DNA of 44,991 nt from contig CAOKVX010000019.1 of NCBI GenBank assembly GCA_948472945.1, positions 1-44,991 on the forward strand, written 5' to 3'. Shown in pieces: positions 8,262 through 40,780 of this stretch. The DNA comes from an uncultured Clostridia bacterium. GTDB taxonomy: Bacteria; Bacillota; Clostridia; Lachnospirales; Lachnospiraceae. The notes beneath the pieces are model-generated. The model saw only the letters and a program-made list of their open reading frames with translations, was not told where the DNA came from and did not search any database. The translations under genes and the position numbers were made by a program. Every line of letters starts with the position of its first letter. Positions within the stretch are counted from its first letter, which is position 1.

Positions 8262-9032
8262 TTAGGTAAATAAACTAAGCAGTTCAACATCTTCCCCAAG
8301 CTTTAATTTCATTTTAGAAAGAGATTTCGTATGGAGCTGCGACACCCTCGACTCGGACACCTCAAGCACATTGCTTATCTCTTTCAATGTCAATTCTTCA
8401 TAATAGTACAACAGAATAACTTTTCTCTCATTCTCCGTAAGTGATTCAAGCGCCTGTTTAAGCCTAACTTTAAGCTCTTCTTTCTCAATCTGTACCTCAG
8501 GCTGCGTAAATTTCGGCCTCACTGAAGGGTCGACCTTAACTTCGGCTCCCTGTTCAATATAGTCGTCCAGCGAAATTATGTTCGCTATCTCCACCTGATT
8601 CTTCCAATCCACCAATTCCTCAAGCGTAATTTCAAGCTCGCCCGCAAGTTCAGCGTCCGTCGCATTTCTTCCATGTATACCCTCAAGCTTTGCGTACGCC
8701 TGCTCTATTTTCTTCTGCTTCTGCCTGAGTGTACGCGGAATCCAATCCATTTTTCTAATCTGGTCAAGTATCGCCCCTCTTATCCTAAGGCTTGCATATG
8801 TTTCAAACTTAACTCCCTTAAAGTAATCAAACTTATCTATAGCATCAATAAGTCCAAACACACCGTAACTTACCAAATCATCAAACTCAACTGTATATCC
8901 AAGATACATGTTGAGCCTGCCCGCAACAAGCTTTACAAGTCCTGCATATTCAATTATTAACTTTTCACGCATATCTGAAGTTTTATGAGCAGAATAGGCC
9001 TCCCAGAGCTCATCTCGTTCATTTTCCTTCAT
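8262..9032 (-). CDS. fliA: Flagellar sigma factor sigma-D/FliA
   Basis: RNA polymerase sigma factor of the sigma-28 group that drives late flagellar, motility and chemotaxis genes. The 256 residues contain region 2 (LVSYGVFGLIDAIDKFDYFK followed by VKFETYASLRIRGAILDQIR), the FliA signature RKMDWIPRTLR, region 3, and region 4 with the helix-turn-helix LTLKEISNVLEVSESRVSQL. AGGTG lies 7 bases before the ATG. It stands near the end of the cluster as sigD does in B. subtilis, where distance from the main promoter limits sigma-D level in the cell. A near-consensus sigma-D promoter before fliK in this window would let it stimulate its own operon. Its anti-sigma factor FlgM is not encoded here. Confidence 0.96.
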   Translation of the reverse strand: MKENERDELWEAYSAHKTSDMREKLIIEYAGLVKLVAGRLNMYLGYTVEFDDLVSYGVFGLIDAIDKFDYFKGVKFETYASLRIRGAILDQIRKMDWIPRTLRQKQKKIEQAYAKLEGIHGRNATDAELAGELEITLEELVDWKNQVEIANIISLDDYIEQGAEVKVDPSVRPKFTQPEVQIEKEELKVRLKQALESLTENERKVILLYYYEELTLKEISNVLEVSESRVSQLHTKSLSKMKLKLGEDVELLSLFT

Positions 9033-27894: not shown

Positions 27895-28080
27895 TTAAAA
27901 ACACGATATTTTACGCTTGTACTCACAGACAAGCGCAACTATCTCCTCCCTGCTCTCCTTGACAACAAACTTCTTGCCGGAAACCAGAGTTACAACCGTA
28001 TCCGGAGTCTCTTCGACCATTTCAATCAAATCCGAATTAAGCGTATATACCGTGTCGTTCATTCTGGTTAATGTTATCAT
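27895..28080 (-). CDS. flbD: FlbD/SwrD family flagellar protein
   Basis: A 61-residue protein of the FlbD/YlzI (SwrD) family: MITLTRMNDTVYTLNSDLIE, then TPDTVVTLVSGKKFVVKESR. In B. subtilis the homologue SwrD raises motor torque, apparently through the stators. The start chosen is the ATG at 28080, 12 bases after GGAGG; the open frame extends 14 codons upstream into the leader, but the family N-terminus is MITLTR. It directly precedes motAB, which fits a stator-linked role. Confidence 0.92.
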   Translation of the reverse strand: MITLTRMNDTVYTLNSDLIEMVEETPDTVVTLVSGKKFVVKESREEIVALVCEYKRKISCF

Positions 28081-28156
28081 AAACCTAATCATCCTCCACA
28101 GACAGGAAATATGGCTCGCCATATGACCGCCCGGTTATACTCCAAAATTTCAACTA

Positions 28157-30318: not shown

Positions 30319-31071
30319 TTACTCAGACTCAGCAGCCTCTGGTTCTTTAACTTCAAGCGTAACCTTATCCGCCACTGTCGTGTAGATTGCATTCGAAAAT
30401 ACAAACGCCACTTTGTAAAGTCCAGACTCAAGGTCTTTCATTGCCTCTTTGTCAATTGTGAGTTTACCGTCATTGTACTTGAGGTACTTTGAATCTATTG
30501 TAGTATCACCAATCAGCACCGCAACTCCCGAAGCCGCATATTCGTCTTTGCCCAAATCAAGAGATATGACAACATCTTCAGGTTTATCCTTTGAATACAC
30601 TGCATCCTGTGCCTCCACGGTCGGCAGTTTCTTTGATACAATATACATATCGTCATATATTGAAGATACGTCCTCAGCATCATACAGTTTTCCGTCAATA
30701 CTAACTTTCATCTTACTGCCCTGCTTTGTAACAAAATCTACAACGCCGGTAACAGTGCGCTCCCTGCCGTCTGAGTCCTCCCATTTCACGGTTGCTGTCT
30801 TGCCTACCATATTGAGGGCTCCCGTATCGGAAAACGACTGGTTAAGGTTCTGAAGCTGTTCCAAAGATGAGAACTGTGCCAGCTGCGCAATAAAATCAGT
30901 ATCGTCTGCCGGATTAAGCGGGTCCTGATACTTCATCTGTGTTACAAGCAGCTGCAGAAAAGCCTCTTTGCCGAGCGTATTATCTTTTTTTTTCGCCTCT
31001 GCCTCCTGTGAAGACTTATCAACAAGTGTTCCATTCACAATAGAATTCACATCTGATGCCGAAAATGCCAT
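30319..31071 (-). CDS. flgD: Hook capping protein FlgD
   Basis: FlgD caps the growing hook and is needed for FlgE assembly. The 250 residues start with the export/cap motif LGKEAFLQLLVTQMKYQDPL followed by NPADDTDFIAQLAQFSSLEQ, then the core beta domains and an acidic C-terminal tail. It lies between fliK and the TIGR02530-type gene, the usual order. Length is typical for clostridia. Confidence 0.96.
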   Translation of the reverse strand: MAFSASDVNSIVNGTLVDKSSQEAEAKKKDNTLGKEAFLQLLVTQMKYQDPLNPADDTDFIAQLAQFSSLEQLQNLNQSFSDTGALNMVGKTATVKWEDSDGRERTVTGVVDFVTKQGSKMKVSIDGKLYDAEDVSSIYDDMYIVSKKLPTVEAQDAVYSKDKPEDVVISLDLGKDEYAASGVAVLIGDTTIDSKYLKYNDGKLTIDKEAMKDLESGLYKVAFVFSNAIYTTVADKVTLEVKEPEAAESE

Positions 31072-31086
31072 AACATTTCCTCCTTT

Positions 31087-32511
31087 CTATGCAGTTATAT
31101 TAATACCCTGTTCAATTTGTTCCGTCTGCGTTTCACTGTTTTCGTCTGCCGCCGCATTTTCTTCAGCCAATTCCACTCTGCCCGCGTCGACACGTCTCTT
31201 TCCATTCCTGCCGCCTCTTTCATTTTCCTGTTCCGCAAAGGTCTGTCTCCTCTGCTCAAACGAAAAATCTGAAACGGTAACCGAAACAGCCTCAACCTTA
31301 AGGCCCTGTTCCTCAAATGCATCTTTAAGCGTCTGAAGCTGGCTTTCAACCGCAATTCGCGCCATCTCGTTTCTGACAATAAAATTGGCAGTCGCAATGC
31401 CGTCTTTAAGTTCAAGAGCAACATTAACCTTACCTAACGATTCAGGATTAAGCTGAATTTCAATCGACGACGCGCCCGCCTTGACATTAGCCTTTACGCC
31501 CTCAACTATCTGAAAAGCTACATCCCTTATCTGACGTATCTGATTATGGTCAAACTTTTCCGAATCTGCAACGCTCTCCTGCACATTGTTTATAAATGTT
31601 TCAAACAAACTTTCATTAAACGCCGCCGGCTGTCTGTTGTTTTCTCTCTCTACTCCCGAATTCAATTCAGATTCGCCGAAACCTCCGGATAATCCCTCTC
31701 CGCCGCCGTCAGCAGCGTTCATCTGCATATTACCGTCAATTGCGTTATTCTGCACAGCGTTCTCCGATACATTTATATTCCCGGAAATCTGCGTATCCTC
31801 AGTTCCCGTTTTTGACATCTCAGCAAGATATTTTCTGACTGCCTCAAAAATATTATCATTCTCAGACAATTTTCCAAGTACAGACGCATCCACCGCCGCT
31901 CCGCCGCCAAGCATAAGCTTGAGCTCCGTCATATCGGCAACGAGACTGTTCCACGCATCGGACAGCGCGCTGTCTGTCAACACCTCAGAAAAGTCTTCCA
32001 TCCCGTTGAGCCTGACAAAAAACTGTTGCAGGTTATCCATATTCAGTAACGAAAAAGCGTTTAGTCCGCTCTCATAAAAAGCTCTCTCTATTTCTTTTTC
32101 AGATATATCCATCCTGCTGTTGAGATAGTCTTTTATCTGCTTCAACAGTTCGTCAATATCTGCTCCGAATAGATTAAGCTCGTCGTCGCCGTCCTCAATC
32201 TCAATGGACACCGTAATTCTGCCATCCATAAAATCTACTTTTATTACATTAAGCTCTTCATTCATGGCTTTTATTTCTTCCGCCGCAAATGAATCTTTTT
32301 GTGCCGGCACTTTATCTGTGGCCACAAACTTATTTATTCCGCCGCGGTTTCCGGGCGCCGCATCAGATTTTGAATTGTTGCCGACACCGTTCCTGCTCAT
32401 ATATTTGTCAAATGCTTTTCCGCTTCCCGTGCGCTCAACGCGCGCAGATCCTGAACCGCCTGCATCCACAAAACTGACAAAACCTTTTCCTGTAACTCCC
32501 TGTGCCGTCAT
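31087..32511 (-). CDS. fliK: Flagellar hook-length control protein FliK
   Basis: FliK measures hook length and triggers the FlhB specificity switch. The 474 residues have a long, poorly conserved N-terminal region rich in Asn, Ala, Glu and Asp, and the conserved C-terminal FliK domain (about 330-425: SSIEIQLNPESLGKVNVALE, then IVRNEMARIAVESQLQTLKD). The end is acidic and probably disordered. I start at the ATG at 32511, 5 bases after GGAGGGG; an ATG six codons earlier overlaps that site. A sigma-D promoter lies about 50-80 bp upstream. Gene identity is clear from the C-terminal domain and position. Confidence 0.92.
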   Translation of the reverse strand: MTAQGVTGKGFVSFVDAGGSGSARVERTGSGKAFDKYMSRNGVGNNSKSDAAPGNRGGINKFVATDKVPAQKDSFAAEEIKAMNEELNVIKVDFMDGRITVSIEIEDGDDELNLFGADIDELLKQIKDYLNSRMDISEKEIERAFYESGLNAFSLLNMDNLQQFFVRLNGMEDFSEVLTDSALSDAWNSLVADMTELKLMLGGGAAVDASVLGKLSENDNIFEAVRKYLAEMSKTGTEDTQISGNINVSENAVQNNAIDGNMQMNAADGGGEGLSGGFGESELNSGVERENNRQPAAFNESLFETFINNVQESVADSEKFDHNQIRQIRDVAFQIVEGVKANVKAGASSIEIQLNPESLGKVNVALELKDGIATANFIVRNEMARIAVESQLQTLKDAFEEQGLKVEAVSVTVSDFSFEQRRQTFAEQENERGGRNGKRRVDAGRVELAEENAAADENSETQTEQIEQGINITA

Positions 32512-32563
32512 CCTCTCCCCTCCTTTCATACATATATATCAAAATATACTTAATACATGCATT

Positions 32564-32591
32564 ATATCGGCAAGTCTTTTATAAAACTTTA
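32564..32591 (-). promoter_or_regulatory. Sigma-D (sigma-28) promoter before fliK
   Basis: On the minus strand TAAAGTTT (TAAA at 32588-32591) and GCCGATAT (32564-32571) stand 12 bases apart, matching the flagellar sigma consensus TAAAGTTT-N11-GCCGATAA almost fully; the TAAA to GCCG distance is 16 where 15 is usual. It lies between motE and fliK. B. subtilis has a comparable sigma-D promoter inside fla/che (PylxF3). Confidence 0.85.
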
Positions 32592-32620
32592 GCCCAAAAC
32601 ATATTTTTAACAAACATTTA

Positions 32621-32680
32621 ACACATTCGCAGCCGCACGGCTCTTTATCCTCACGCGTACGGATGTATATGCGAATATGT
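32621..32680 (-). other. Long stem-loop at the motE stop codon
   Basis: Eleven-base arms ACACATTCGCA (32621-32631) and TGCGAATATGT (32670-32680) pair throughout with one G-U wobble in RNA. The second arm touches the motE stop codon. The enclosed 38 bases can form two more short stems (ATCC/GGAT and GCC/GGC), giving a three-way junction. No T tract follows, and the sigma-D promoter begins 30 bp further on. Confidence 0.6.
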
Positions 32681-33420
32681 CATTTTGTATATGTCATCTT
32701 CTTCGTTATCTGAGCTGCCGTCTCAGCCTCCATCTCGGCGAGAATAAGCGAACTCTTCGACGAACTCATACCGCTGAGTATTCCTGCCACAAGGTCAAGG
32801 TCTCCCGCAGTCATTCCTGAAAGTATGCGCGCCGCATCCGCAGGCTCCATCTTTCCGTATGTCTCGGCCTGAGATTTTACTCTGGCGTCATACTGGTACT
32901 GTTCAACTACCTGTGCATATATCTCCTCCGCATTTTCAGGCGATATCTCCTCATAATATTTCTTATACTCCTCTATATCCGGAGCGTTATTGCCGAACAC
33001 TACCTCGTTATCAAATTCAAGCACTCTCTGTTCGAACGCTTCCTGACTGTCACGGTACACTTTAAGGTTACTTACTTCCTGCTCCAGCTGTTCTATGTAA
33101 TCCGTATTGGCTGCCGTGTTACTTCCCTGGGAGGCCAGTATGTTTTCAAGCTCGTTAATACGTTCAATCGCCTGTGCCAGATTCGTATATTTCCCATTGT
33201 TATTTGTACTCTGCGAATTGTCGTCCTGTACTTCAGGTAAAATCTTGTTAACTATAGGAACGTCCTTTAAGACAGGATATAATATATCGCTTCCGAATCC
33301 CCCTACGTCAAATTTAATCAGGGCTGCAAATATAGCAAGCCAAACAAAAACTATTACAAGCACTATAACAGCTGAAACTATTCCGCCGCTTTCTTTTTTT
33401 TCTTTATCTTCTTTTGCCAA
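32680..33420 (-). CDS. MotE/YlxF-like flagellar coiled-coil protein
   Basis: A 246-residue protein with a basic N-terminus, one membrane helix (about residues 14-36, AVIVLVIVFVWLAIFAALI), a coiled-coil region (about 80-140) and a C-terminal MgtE-N-like helical domain (PADAARILSGMTAGDLDLVA). This is the plan of MotE/YlxF proteins between fliJ and fliK. In other bacteria MotE is a chaperone of MotC; in Bacillus, YlxF lacks a well-defined role. It directly abuts fliJ. The gene symbol is left blank because orthology to either is uncertain. Confidence 0.82.
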   Translation of the reverse strand: MAKEDKEKKESGGIVSAVIVLVIVFVWLAIFAALIKFDVGGFGSDILYPVLKDVPIVNKILPEVQDDNSQSTNNNGKYTNLAQAIERINELENILASQGSNTAANTDYIEQLEQEVSNLKVYRDSQEAFEQRVLEFDNEVVFGNNAPDIEEYKKYYEEISPENAEEIYAQVVEQYQYDARVKSQAETYGKMEPADAARILSGMTAGDLDLVAGILSGMSSSKSSLILAEMEAETAAQITKKMTYTK

Positions 33421-39916: not shown

Positions 39917-40006
39917 ATTACATAATCCCCCTTAAAATCTAATCACAAACAAAGGACTCATGAGCTGACTTTCCCATAAATCCTTTTATAAAAAATCTGA
40001 ATCCAT

Positions 40007-40780
40007 TCATTCTTTCTTTTCCAAGCTCAGTTCGGAAAACACTGCATCATTAATCACTTTTATATATGTACCTTTCATACCTGATGAGTGTGATTCTATC
40101 ACTCCGGCACTTTCAAACTTTCTCAGAGCATTAACTATAACCGAGCGGGTAATTCCAACCCTGTCTGCAATTTTGCTGGCGACAAGGACTCCTTCCTTGT
40201 TGCCAAGCTCCTCAAAGACATGGGATATAGCCTCGATTTCAGAGTATGACAGCGTTCCGATAACCGATTTTACTATCTGTTTCTTCCTGATGTTTTCAGC
40301 ATCCTCTTCCTTGACAGACCTCATCATCTCAAGACCAACAACAGTCGTGCCATACTCGCTCAATATAATATCATCAATTGTAAATTCACTGTTAATTCTG
40401 TATATGAATAACGTACCAAGCCTTTCACCTGATATGTCGATAGGAACTATAATAGCATTATATCCATTCTCTCTTGCTCTTTCAAATCCAAATGTAGCCA
40501 AATTGACATTTTCCATTGTTGAAAGCACATTAAGAAAACGTTCATTGAGAGTGACATCAATAAGCCTGCCAACCTGATTCTGTAAAAGTTCCTGAAGACA
40601 TTCCACATCATCTCTGTTATATATTCCGAGAATCTTTCCCTTCTTGCTTAAAACGATAATATTAGAATGTAAAACATCCCCCAAAACCGCACATATGTCG
40701 TCAAAAACAAACTTACCGGATGTATTATTGTGTAACAACTTATTGATTTTTCTTGTCCTATCCAACAATTGAACACTCAT
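40007..40780 (-). CDS. codY: GTP- and branched-chain amino acid-sensing repressor CodY
   Basis: CodY represses many nutrient-limitation genes when GTP and branched-chain amino acids are plentiful. The 257 residues have the N-terminal GAF domain (LLDRTRKINKLLHNNTSGKF) and a C-terminal winged helix (ASKIADRVGITRSVIVNALR, then GMKGTYIKVIN). In B. subtilis CodY represses the fla/che promoter and lies directly upstream of flgB, as here. The gene has a good promoter with a repeated element. I see no exact copy of the CodY box AATTTTCWGAAAATT in the codY-flgB gap. Confidence 0.97.
   Translation of the reverse strand: MSVQLLDRTRKINKLLHNNTSGKFVFDDICAVLGDVLHSNIIVLSKKGKILGIYNRDDVECLQELLQNQVGRLIDVTLNERFLNVLSTMENVNLATFGFERARENGYNAIIVPIDISGERLGTLFIYRINSEFTIDDIILSEYGTTVVGLEMMRSVKEEDAENIRKKQIVKSVIGTLSYSEIEAISHVFEELGNKEGVLVASKIADRVGITRSVIVNALRKFESAGVIESHSSGMKGTYIKVINDAVFSELSLEKKE

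What the first reader, a model, noticed from the sequence alone, without database searches (positions are those of the whole stretch)
32564..32591. Sigma-D promoter inside the fla/che cluster, ahead of fliK
The sequence shows TAAAGTTT-N12-GCCGATAT on the minus strand in the motE-fliK gap, a near-perfect flagellar sigma site. sigD itself lies about 23 kb downstream in the same direction, so this would form a positive feedback loop. B. subtilis has an analogous internal promoter (PylxF3), here shifted by one gene. It suggests that hook-length control and later genes are boosted after sigma-D becomes active.
Basis: partly seen in the sequence, partly recalled or inferred. Interest (0 to 1): 0.7.

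Follow-up and report, generated by a model that had tools for sequence, protein, structure and literature searches.

The report
Flagellar sigma promoter ahead of fliK
Midway through a long flagellar operon there is a clear start site for the flagellar sigma factor, just before the hook-length gene; related gut bacteria keep it in the same place, so the factor probably boosts the half of the operon that contains its own gene.

Summary
In detail: TAAAGTTT-N12-GCCGATAT is exact at 32564-32591, minus strand, in the motE-fliK gap; sigD lies 23.5 kb downstream on the same strand. Comparison makes it a sigma-D promoter. Among 96 operons, the stretch after motE holds a 10-of-12 or better match on the sense strand in 37 and antisense in 1; the other gaps give 0 to 15%. 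A matrix built only from motE gaps finds sites ahead of 7 of 8 flgM and 9 of 30 flagellin loci. Matrices trained on one clade recover 12 of 15 and 14 of 16 of the other. The window's clade has the site in 14 of 14 genomes, a second clade in 14 of 16; in the second, 12 of 16 leaders also carry a boxA-like element resembling the rRNA-spacer boxA. The window lacks boxA. Against: 60 of 96 operons lack the site, and most other late genes of this genome showed no close match nearby. Internal sigma-D promoters are known in B. subtilis, so this is a new variant. Feedback onto sigD is inferred from geometry, not shown.

The parts
32564..32591 (-). Sigma-D promoter: -35 TAAAGTTT (32591-32584), N12, -10 GCCGATAT (32571-32564); predicted start about 7-8 nt downstream (near 32556)
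   Evidence: Exact match; matrix score 28.1, the highest of the 6 window hits at 12 or more; 1 difference in 28 against the close relative G008, in the spacer
32680..33420 (-). motE/ylxF-like gene (E-ring/collar protein) just upstream
   Evidence: MgtE_N 1.2e-4, below its cut-off; collar_FlbB 4.2e-8, below its cut-off
31087..32529 (-). fliK, hook-length control; probable start 32511 rather than 32529
   Evidence: Flg_hook PF02120, 68.7 bits; ribosome-binding site before ATG 32511
30319..31071 (-). flgD, next gene downstream
   Evidence: FlgD PF03963, 86.1 bits
8262..9032 (-). sigD (fliA/whiG family), presumed distal target of the internal promoter
   Evidence: TIGR02479, 257 bits, over its cut-off
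32619..32682 (-). Hairpin from the motE stop codon, upstream of the promoter; not conserved in G008
   Evidence: -27.4 kcal/mol for the 91-nt stretch, z -2.67, 1 of 200 shuffles as good; columns 10-76 of the alignment differ in 45 of 67 from G008
40007..40780 (-). codY, directly upstream of flgB and the early part of the operon
   Evidence: CodY PF06018 and HTH_CodY PF08222

Best explanation
The site is a sigma-D (sigma-28 type) promoter inside the long fla/che operon. Early transcription from upstream of flgB makes the basal-body genes and a first amount of SigD. Once SigD is free of FlgM, its polymerase starts about 45 nt ahead of fliK. It then re-transcribes fliK, flgD, flgE, motAB, the export and che genes, and at the far end sigD itself, giving a positive feedback boost to the second half of the operon. 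Shown here: the sequence, its strong preference for this place in two clades, its likeness to the motif ahead of flgM and part of the flagellin genes, and the same-strand order of genes down to sigD. Inferred: the start point, the dependence on SigD, read-through over 23.5 kb, and the feedback.
For: Exact match. Consensus-only test: 37 of 96 motE gaps have 10 or more of 12 letters on the sense strand against 1 of 96 antisense; the other 21 gap types give 0 to 12 genomes each. In the first 39 genomes no permuted motif of 300 reaches the observed 9. The motE-gap matrix has a hit of 14 or more within 300 nt ahead of the match in 7 of 8 flgM loci and 9 of 30 flagellin loci; one random draw of the same 241,715 bp gave 1 hit in all. 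Cross-clade training recovers 12 of 15 and 14 of 16. Over 1,885,148 bp of operon stretches, matrix score 17 or more occurs 66 times sense and 4 times antisense; 34 of the 66 lie between motE and fliK (the motE count is circular, the rest is not). On the tree the trait changes 10 times against 28.5 for shuffled labels, minimum 22, and it marks two clades with local support 1.0, 14 of 14 and 14 of 16. SigD is in the operon and FlgM in the genome. In the terminator scan each minus-strand terminator-like site between fliK and sigD fell inside an ORF, none in a gap.
Against: No transcript data. 60 of 96 operons have no motE-gap site scoring above 12, so the location is not required for flagella. 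In this genome, of 22 late-gene starts examined, 6 had 10 or more of 12 letters within 350 nt: one flagellin (53 nt ahead) and five of 16 chemoreceptor genes (219-320 nt ahead); the flagellin with the best family match (C34) and flgK had none that good, and flgM had 9 of 12. Gaps with a site are longer (median 101 against 70.5 nt), although the consensus test used stretches of fixed length. The site overlaps a perfect TATAAT, so some SigA use cannot be excluded.
Confidence: 0.85

Rival explanations
1. The promoter is real and used by sigma-D, but its transcript is a local boost for fliK and its near neighbours (hook-length control and export switching). It does not reach sigD in useful amounts, so there is no feedback loop.
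For: sigD is 23.5 kb away. In B. subtilis a defect in completing the fla/che transcript without NusG lowers sigD more than flgC (PMC8060035, passages). In one clade the leader carries a boxA-like element, as if read-through needed help, and the window lacks it.
Against: No terminator-like site in the gaps. B. subtilis PylxF3 is said to govern sigD expression in part (PMC3865298, passages).
Confidence: 0.35
2. A housekeeping (sigma-A) promoter using the overlapping TATAAT, or a dual sigma-A/sigma-D start site.
For: Perfect TATAAT overlapping the -10. [quoted passage not shown]
Against: Best -35 at the right spacing matches 1 of 6. Only 8 of 36 conserved sites hold an overlapping TATAAT, while GAT of the sigma-D -10 is kept in 35 or 36 of 36.
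Confidence: 0.08
3. Chance resemblance or a decayed, unused site.
For: The 2.7-Mb genome holds two other exact TAAA-N16-GCCGATAT matches, inside ORFs.
Against: Expected 1.5e-7 in the gap; a site in this gap in all four genus members in which the operon was found; 1 difference in 28 against G008 while 67 columns upstream differ in 45.
Confidence: 0.03

Closest known systems
Bacillus subtilis PylxF3, internal SigD promoter of the fla/che operon
   Same: SigD promoter inside the long flagellar operon with sigD near its end; named after the ylxF/motE gene; partly governs sigD (PMC3865298, passages)
   Different: Here the site is after motE/ylxF and before fliK; the exact B. subtilis position was not read (recalled); spacing here is TAAA-N16-GCCGATAT
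Proposed SigD promoters inside the Clostridioides difficile early flagellar operon (upstream of motA and fliQ)
   Same: Internal SigD-type sites downstream of the first genes of the operon, proposed in silico (PMC3865298, passages)
   Different: Other positions; the main text of that paper has 0 occurrences of fliK
Sigma-28 promoters of Lachnospiraceae flagellin genes (Eubacterium, Roseburia, Butyrivibrio fibrisolvens)
   Same: Same sigma factor family and consensus, TAAA N16-17 MCGATAa or TAAA N15 CCGATAT (PMC3720852, passages)
   Different: Those precede fliC genes; the main text of that paper has 0 occurrences of fliK
E. coli sigma-28/MotR/S10-NusB antitermination of long flagellar operons
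   Same: A proposed help by NusB-S10 to sigma-28 transcription of long flagellar operons (PMC10578931, passages)
   Different: boxA has 0 occurrences there; in the second clade here a boxA-like element lies in the leader itself; the window has none

Membership tests
Sigma-D (sigma-28) promoter | -35 TAAA and -10 (G)CCGATAT at 15-17 nt | tested here: met
   All 12 letters, spacer 16, the best-scoring spacer among the conserved sites
Sigma-D (sigma-28) promoter | Same motif ahead of flgM and of at least one flagellin gene of the same genome | tested here: met
   flgM (16.2) and one flagellin (20.4) of G000 hit by a matrix built only from motE gaps. Misses: the flagellin on C34, the two flagellins behind the hit one, flgK, and 11 of 16 chemoreceptor genes below 10 of 12 letters
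Sigma-D (sigma-28) promoter | Transcription start that needs SigD | not testable with these tools
   Needs 5'-end mapping in wild type and a sigD mutant
Internal SigD promoter of a fla/che operon (PylxF3 type) | Lies inside the operon with sigD downstream on the same strand | tested here: met
Internal SigD promoter of a fla/che operon (PylxF3 type) | Lies upstream of ylxF/motE (position in B. subtilis recalled, from the name) | tested here: not met
   It lies downstream of the motE-like gene
Internal SigD promoter of a fla/che operon (PylxF3 type) | Contributes to sigD expression | not testable with these tools
   Needs a promoter mutant
boxA-containing leader | rRNA-type boxA between promoter and fliK | tested here: not met
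   Not found in the window's gap; the motif is in 14 of 96 motE gaps, none of them in the window's clade
Sigma-A promoter | TTGACA-like -35 at 16-18 nt from TATAAT | tested here: not met
   1 of 6 letters at best

The most novel reading that the evidence does not exclude
The motE-fliK gap is a conserved relay point of the flagellar operon in Lachnospiraceae. Sigma-D re-initiates there, and in one clade the new transcript carries a rRNA-type boxA that loads NusB-S10. This would make the polymerase processive over more than 20 kb so that it reaches sigD (or would repress fliK translation, as reported for suhB in E. coli). The window belongs to the clade that has the promoter without boxA.
Probability: 0.35. 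Interest if true: 0.75.

Novelty: new variant of a known kind. Interest (0 to 1): 0.5.

Why it matters
In B. [quoted passage not shown] A sigma-D promoter kept in place mid-operon would be another way to set that switch in common gut bacteria. It splits the operon into an early part and a part that answers to SigD. The boxA-like element in a second clade would, if functional, be a cis-acting counterpart of the NusB-S10 effect proposed for E. coli sigma-28 flagellar operons. Both can be tested with one promoter or boxA mutation and RNA sequencing.

Tried and rejected
Rejected: sigma-A promoter (no -35). Rejected: an intrinsic terminator that separates early from late genes; the hairpin before the promoter is followed by no T-run and is not kept in G008. 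Rejected: a rRNA-type boxA in the window's own leader (not found). Not used as evidence: the seven sites inside fliJ, which may be coding sequence. A stable hairpin in the window's own predicted leader was not supported (z -0.62). A first alignment of the genus members used wrong coordinates for G008 and was replaced. A family-wide pattern for promoter plus boxA gave matches in 15 of 397 genomes, of which 2 (G386, G477) were at motE-fliK and 13 were not; the reversed pattern had 9 matches, so this adds two cases and no statistic. The 17-letter boxA with up to 3 mismatches gave 8 sense and 5 antisense hits in 1.885 Mb, and 12 permuted patterns gave 0 to 6 on one strand, so the number is not remarkable; the place is (6 of the 8 sense hits at motE-fliK).

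Limits: flgC, fliE, fliF, fliG, fliH and fliI, and most genes between fliL and cheA, are named from gene order and collinear tblastn with window proteins; they were not checked by profile. The 27895-28122 ORF is called FlbD-like from position and recall. Of 61 other genomes with flgD, 52 were fetched. 96 of 101 stretches gave a motE window. Three of 96 (L146, L152, L294) were left out of the tree for too few residues. The 37 genomes of the consensus test and the 37 of the matrix overlap but are not the same set. The matrix counts for motE are circular and are used only outside motE or across clades. Of 30 loci made, 18 were scanned for RNA families; 2 of the 18 held rRNA next to the boxA-like sequence. 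Passages of PMC2245950 and PMC12826050 were looked at and are not used.

Full report
What is there. On the minus strand the gap between the motE-like gene (stop at 32680) and fliK reads ...GGGCTAAAGTTTTATAAAAGACTTGCCGATATAATGCATG.... An order-0 estimate gives 1.5e-7 expected exact matches in the gap. The first ATG of the fliK frame is 32529, but the ATG with a Shine-Dalgarno sequence is 32511. The -10 therefore ends 52 nt before the likely start codon, and a transcript starting 7-8 nt after it would have a leader of about 45 nt. FliK, FliJ, FlgD, FlgE, CheW, CheC, CheD, MotA, MotB and CodY were identified by profile. sigD is 8262-9032 on the same strand, 23.5 kb downstream.

Is it a sigma-D site? 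The argument is comparative. I fetched 100 stretches of up to 20 kb around flgD from other genomes, which with the window makes 101; 96 gave a usable stretch from -60 to +200 around the motE stop. With the plain consensus TAAA-N14-17-GCCGATAT, 37 of 96 have at least 10 of 12 letters on the sense strand, 16 at least 11 and 4 all 12; on the antisense strand 1, 0 and 0. The other 21 gap types of the same operons have 0 to 12 genomes at 10 or more (fliE 12 of 79, flgD 11 of 100, codY 9 of 69, fliH 8 of 92, the rest lower). In the first 39 genomes, 300 permuted motifs never reached the 9 observed, mean 1.5, maximum 6.

A matrix built from the motE-gap sites has the form TTAAGTTT-N11-TGCCGATATAA, best spacer 16 between TAAA and GCCGATAT. 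Best scores in motE gaps fall into two heaps: 36 genomes at 16 or more and 60 at 11.6 or less. On DNA it was not trained on, the matrix has a hit of 14 or more within 300 nt ahead of the match in 7 of 8 flgM loci and in 9 of 30 flagellin loci of six to eight genomes; in the window's genome these are flgM (16.2) and one flagellin (20.4). One random draw of the same 241,715 bp gave 1 hit of 14 or more. Some loci overlap and share a site. Trained on one clade alone, the matrix recovers 12 of 15 (window's clade; the three misses score 11.3 at a threshold of 11.6) and 14 of 16 (second clade) of the other at a 99% antisense threshold. In genomes outside the training clade the other gaps tested gave at most 8 of 76 (fliH), against 19 of 80 and 21 of 81 for motE. 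In 1,885,148 bp of operon stretches, scores of 17 or more occur 66 times on the sense strand and 4 times antisense; 34 of the 66 are between motE and fliK.

Results against. 60 of 96 operons have no motE-gap site scoring above 12. In this genome 22 late-gene starts were examined within 350 nt: 6 had 10 or more of 12 letters, namely one flagellin and five of 16 chemoreceptor genes, the latter 219-320 nt ahead; the flagellin on C34, flgK, flgM and two further flagellins had 8 or 9. So either other late genes use weaker or more distant sites, or their starts were taken wrongly, or not all are under SigD.

Where it occurs. A fliI match at 1e-60 or better, taken as a sign of the operon, was found in 4 of 10 genomes of the window's genus. 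All four have a site in this gap, scores 28.1, 28.1, 26.5 and 24.4. Against the nearest (G008) the 28-nt site differs in 1 position, in the spacer; the 124 columns around it differ in 8, while 67 columns upstream differ in 45. On a tree of 93 genomes from six concatenated flagellar proteins (FastTree) the site is in 35; it changes 10 times against a mean of 28.5 (minimum 22) for shuffled labels. Two clades, each with local support 1.0, hold 28 of the 35. The window's clade (14 of 14) has Roseburia- and Eubacterium-named MAGs among its members; the second (14 of 16) includes Parablautia muri and Lachnospiraceae bacterium IMSAGC_005. Names come from the contigs through the handles. Other lineages may place a sigma-D site elsewhere: five (Acetivibrio ethanolgignens, Mobilitalea sibirica, a Lachnoclostridium MAG, a Clostridiales MAG and a Herbinix MAG; L281, L284, L285, L290, L292) between fliH and fliI, and three between codY and flgB.

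A second element in other genomes. Shortly before fliK, 14 of 96 motE gaps hold AC[CAT]TTGAAAA, in most of them directly ahead of the Shine-Dalgarno sequence. Random versions of the gaps gave a mean of 0.41 (maximum 2), and the other 21 gap types gave 3 of 1710. Of the 14, ten also have the sigma-D site; 12 are in the second clade, two elsewhere, none in the window's clade. A nearly identical sequence, GTACCTTGAAAACCGAA, lies between a tRNA and the 23S rRNA in G143 (L368, about 160 nt before the 23S) and about 120 nt before the 23S in G147 (L347). From that place, and from its likeness to the B. subtilis boxA as I recall it, I take it as the rRNA-type boxA of these bacteria; only 2 of 18 scanned loci held rRNA beside it, and several other matches lie at contig ends. 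boxA binds NusB-S10, and in the E. coli suhB leader this represses translation (PMC10931766, passages). In E. coli, MotR, which raises S10, raises transcript levels of sigma-28 flagellar operons in a nusB-dependent way, which its authors take as antitermination (PMC10578931, passages). The reading that a boxA-bearing leader helps the sigma-D transcript reach sigD, or represses fliK, is an inference. The window itself has no such element.

How it most likely works. See the best explanation: a mid-operon sigma-D promoter that re-transcribes fliK through sigD once SigD is free. The loop is drawn from gene order; no transcript data were available here. A perfect TATAAT overlaps the -10, but there is no matching -35, and only 8 of 36 conserved sites share it.

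Compared with what is known. B. subtilis fla/che has internal SigD promoters, PylxF3 and a PsigD whose activity is not clearly demonstrated, and C. difficile has proposed ones before motA and fliQ (PMC3865298, passages). YlxF is the MotE/FlgY homologue (PMC13023049, passages). The kind is therefore known; the position ahead of fliK, its maintenance in two clades, and the boxA neighbour are what is new to me. Searches of the held library showed me no paper on a fliK-proximal sigma-D promoter in Lachnospiraceae or on a boxA in a flagellar operon. I saw capped listings, abstract beginnings and the passages named, not whole papers; most subscription papers are not held.

Noticed in passing
L348:1243-1517, L357:1243-1517, L367:1501-1766: A boxA-like sequence lies about 190 nt upstream of a pemK RNA match (RF02913) in all three of the 18 scanned loci that have one (genomes G143 and G147); by eye an integrase-like ORF follows in L348 and L367: possibly an antitermination leader of integrative elements.
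   Followed up: partly
L281, L284, L285, L290, L292: A sigma-D-like site in the fliH-fliI gap of other lineages, scores 18.7-25.4: the internal promoter seems to change place between lineages.
   Followed up: partly
L139, L308, L317, L319, L322 (also L144, L148), inside fliJ: Sigma-D-like sequences inside fliJ, upstream of motE, the place that the name of B. subtilis PylxF3 suggests; may be only conserved coding sequence.
   Followed up: no
window 39917-40780: codY sits about 90 nt upstream of flgB on the same strand, so early flagellar genes may be co-transcribed with codY. codY precedes flgB in most of the 40 relatives shown.
   Followed up: no
L206:about 879 (G000:C6:17236-17263), minus strand: A sigma-D site (20.2) about 120 nt ahead of a 212-aa ORF of unknown function beginning MKEVNTMDVNAVNNSYAY, next to a chemoreceptor gene: candidate SigD regulon member.
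   Followed up: partly
L123, L128, L141, L294-L297 (leaders of fliK): Several leaders downstream of the promoter contain inverted repeats, seen by eye in the output; structure was not tested.
   Followed up: no
window 32619-32682: Stable hairpin starting at the motE stop codon, z -2.67, absent from the near relative G008.
   Followed up: partly
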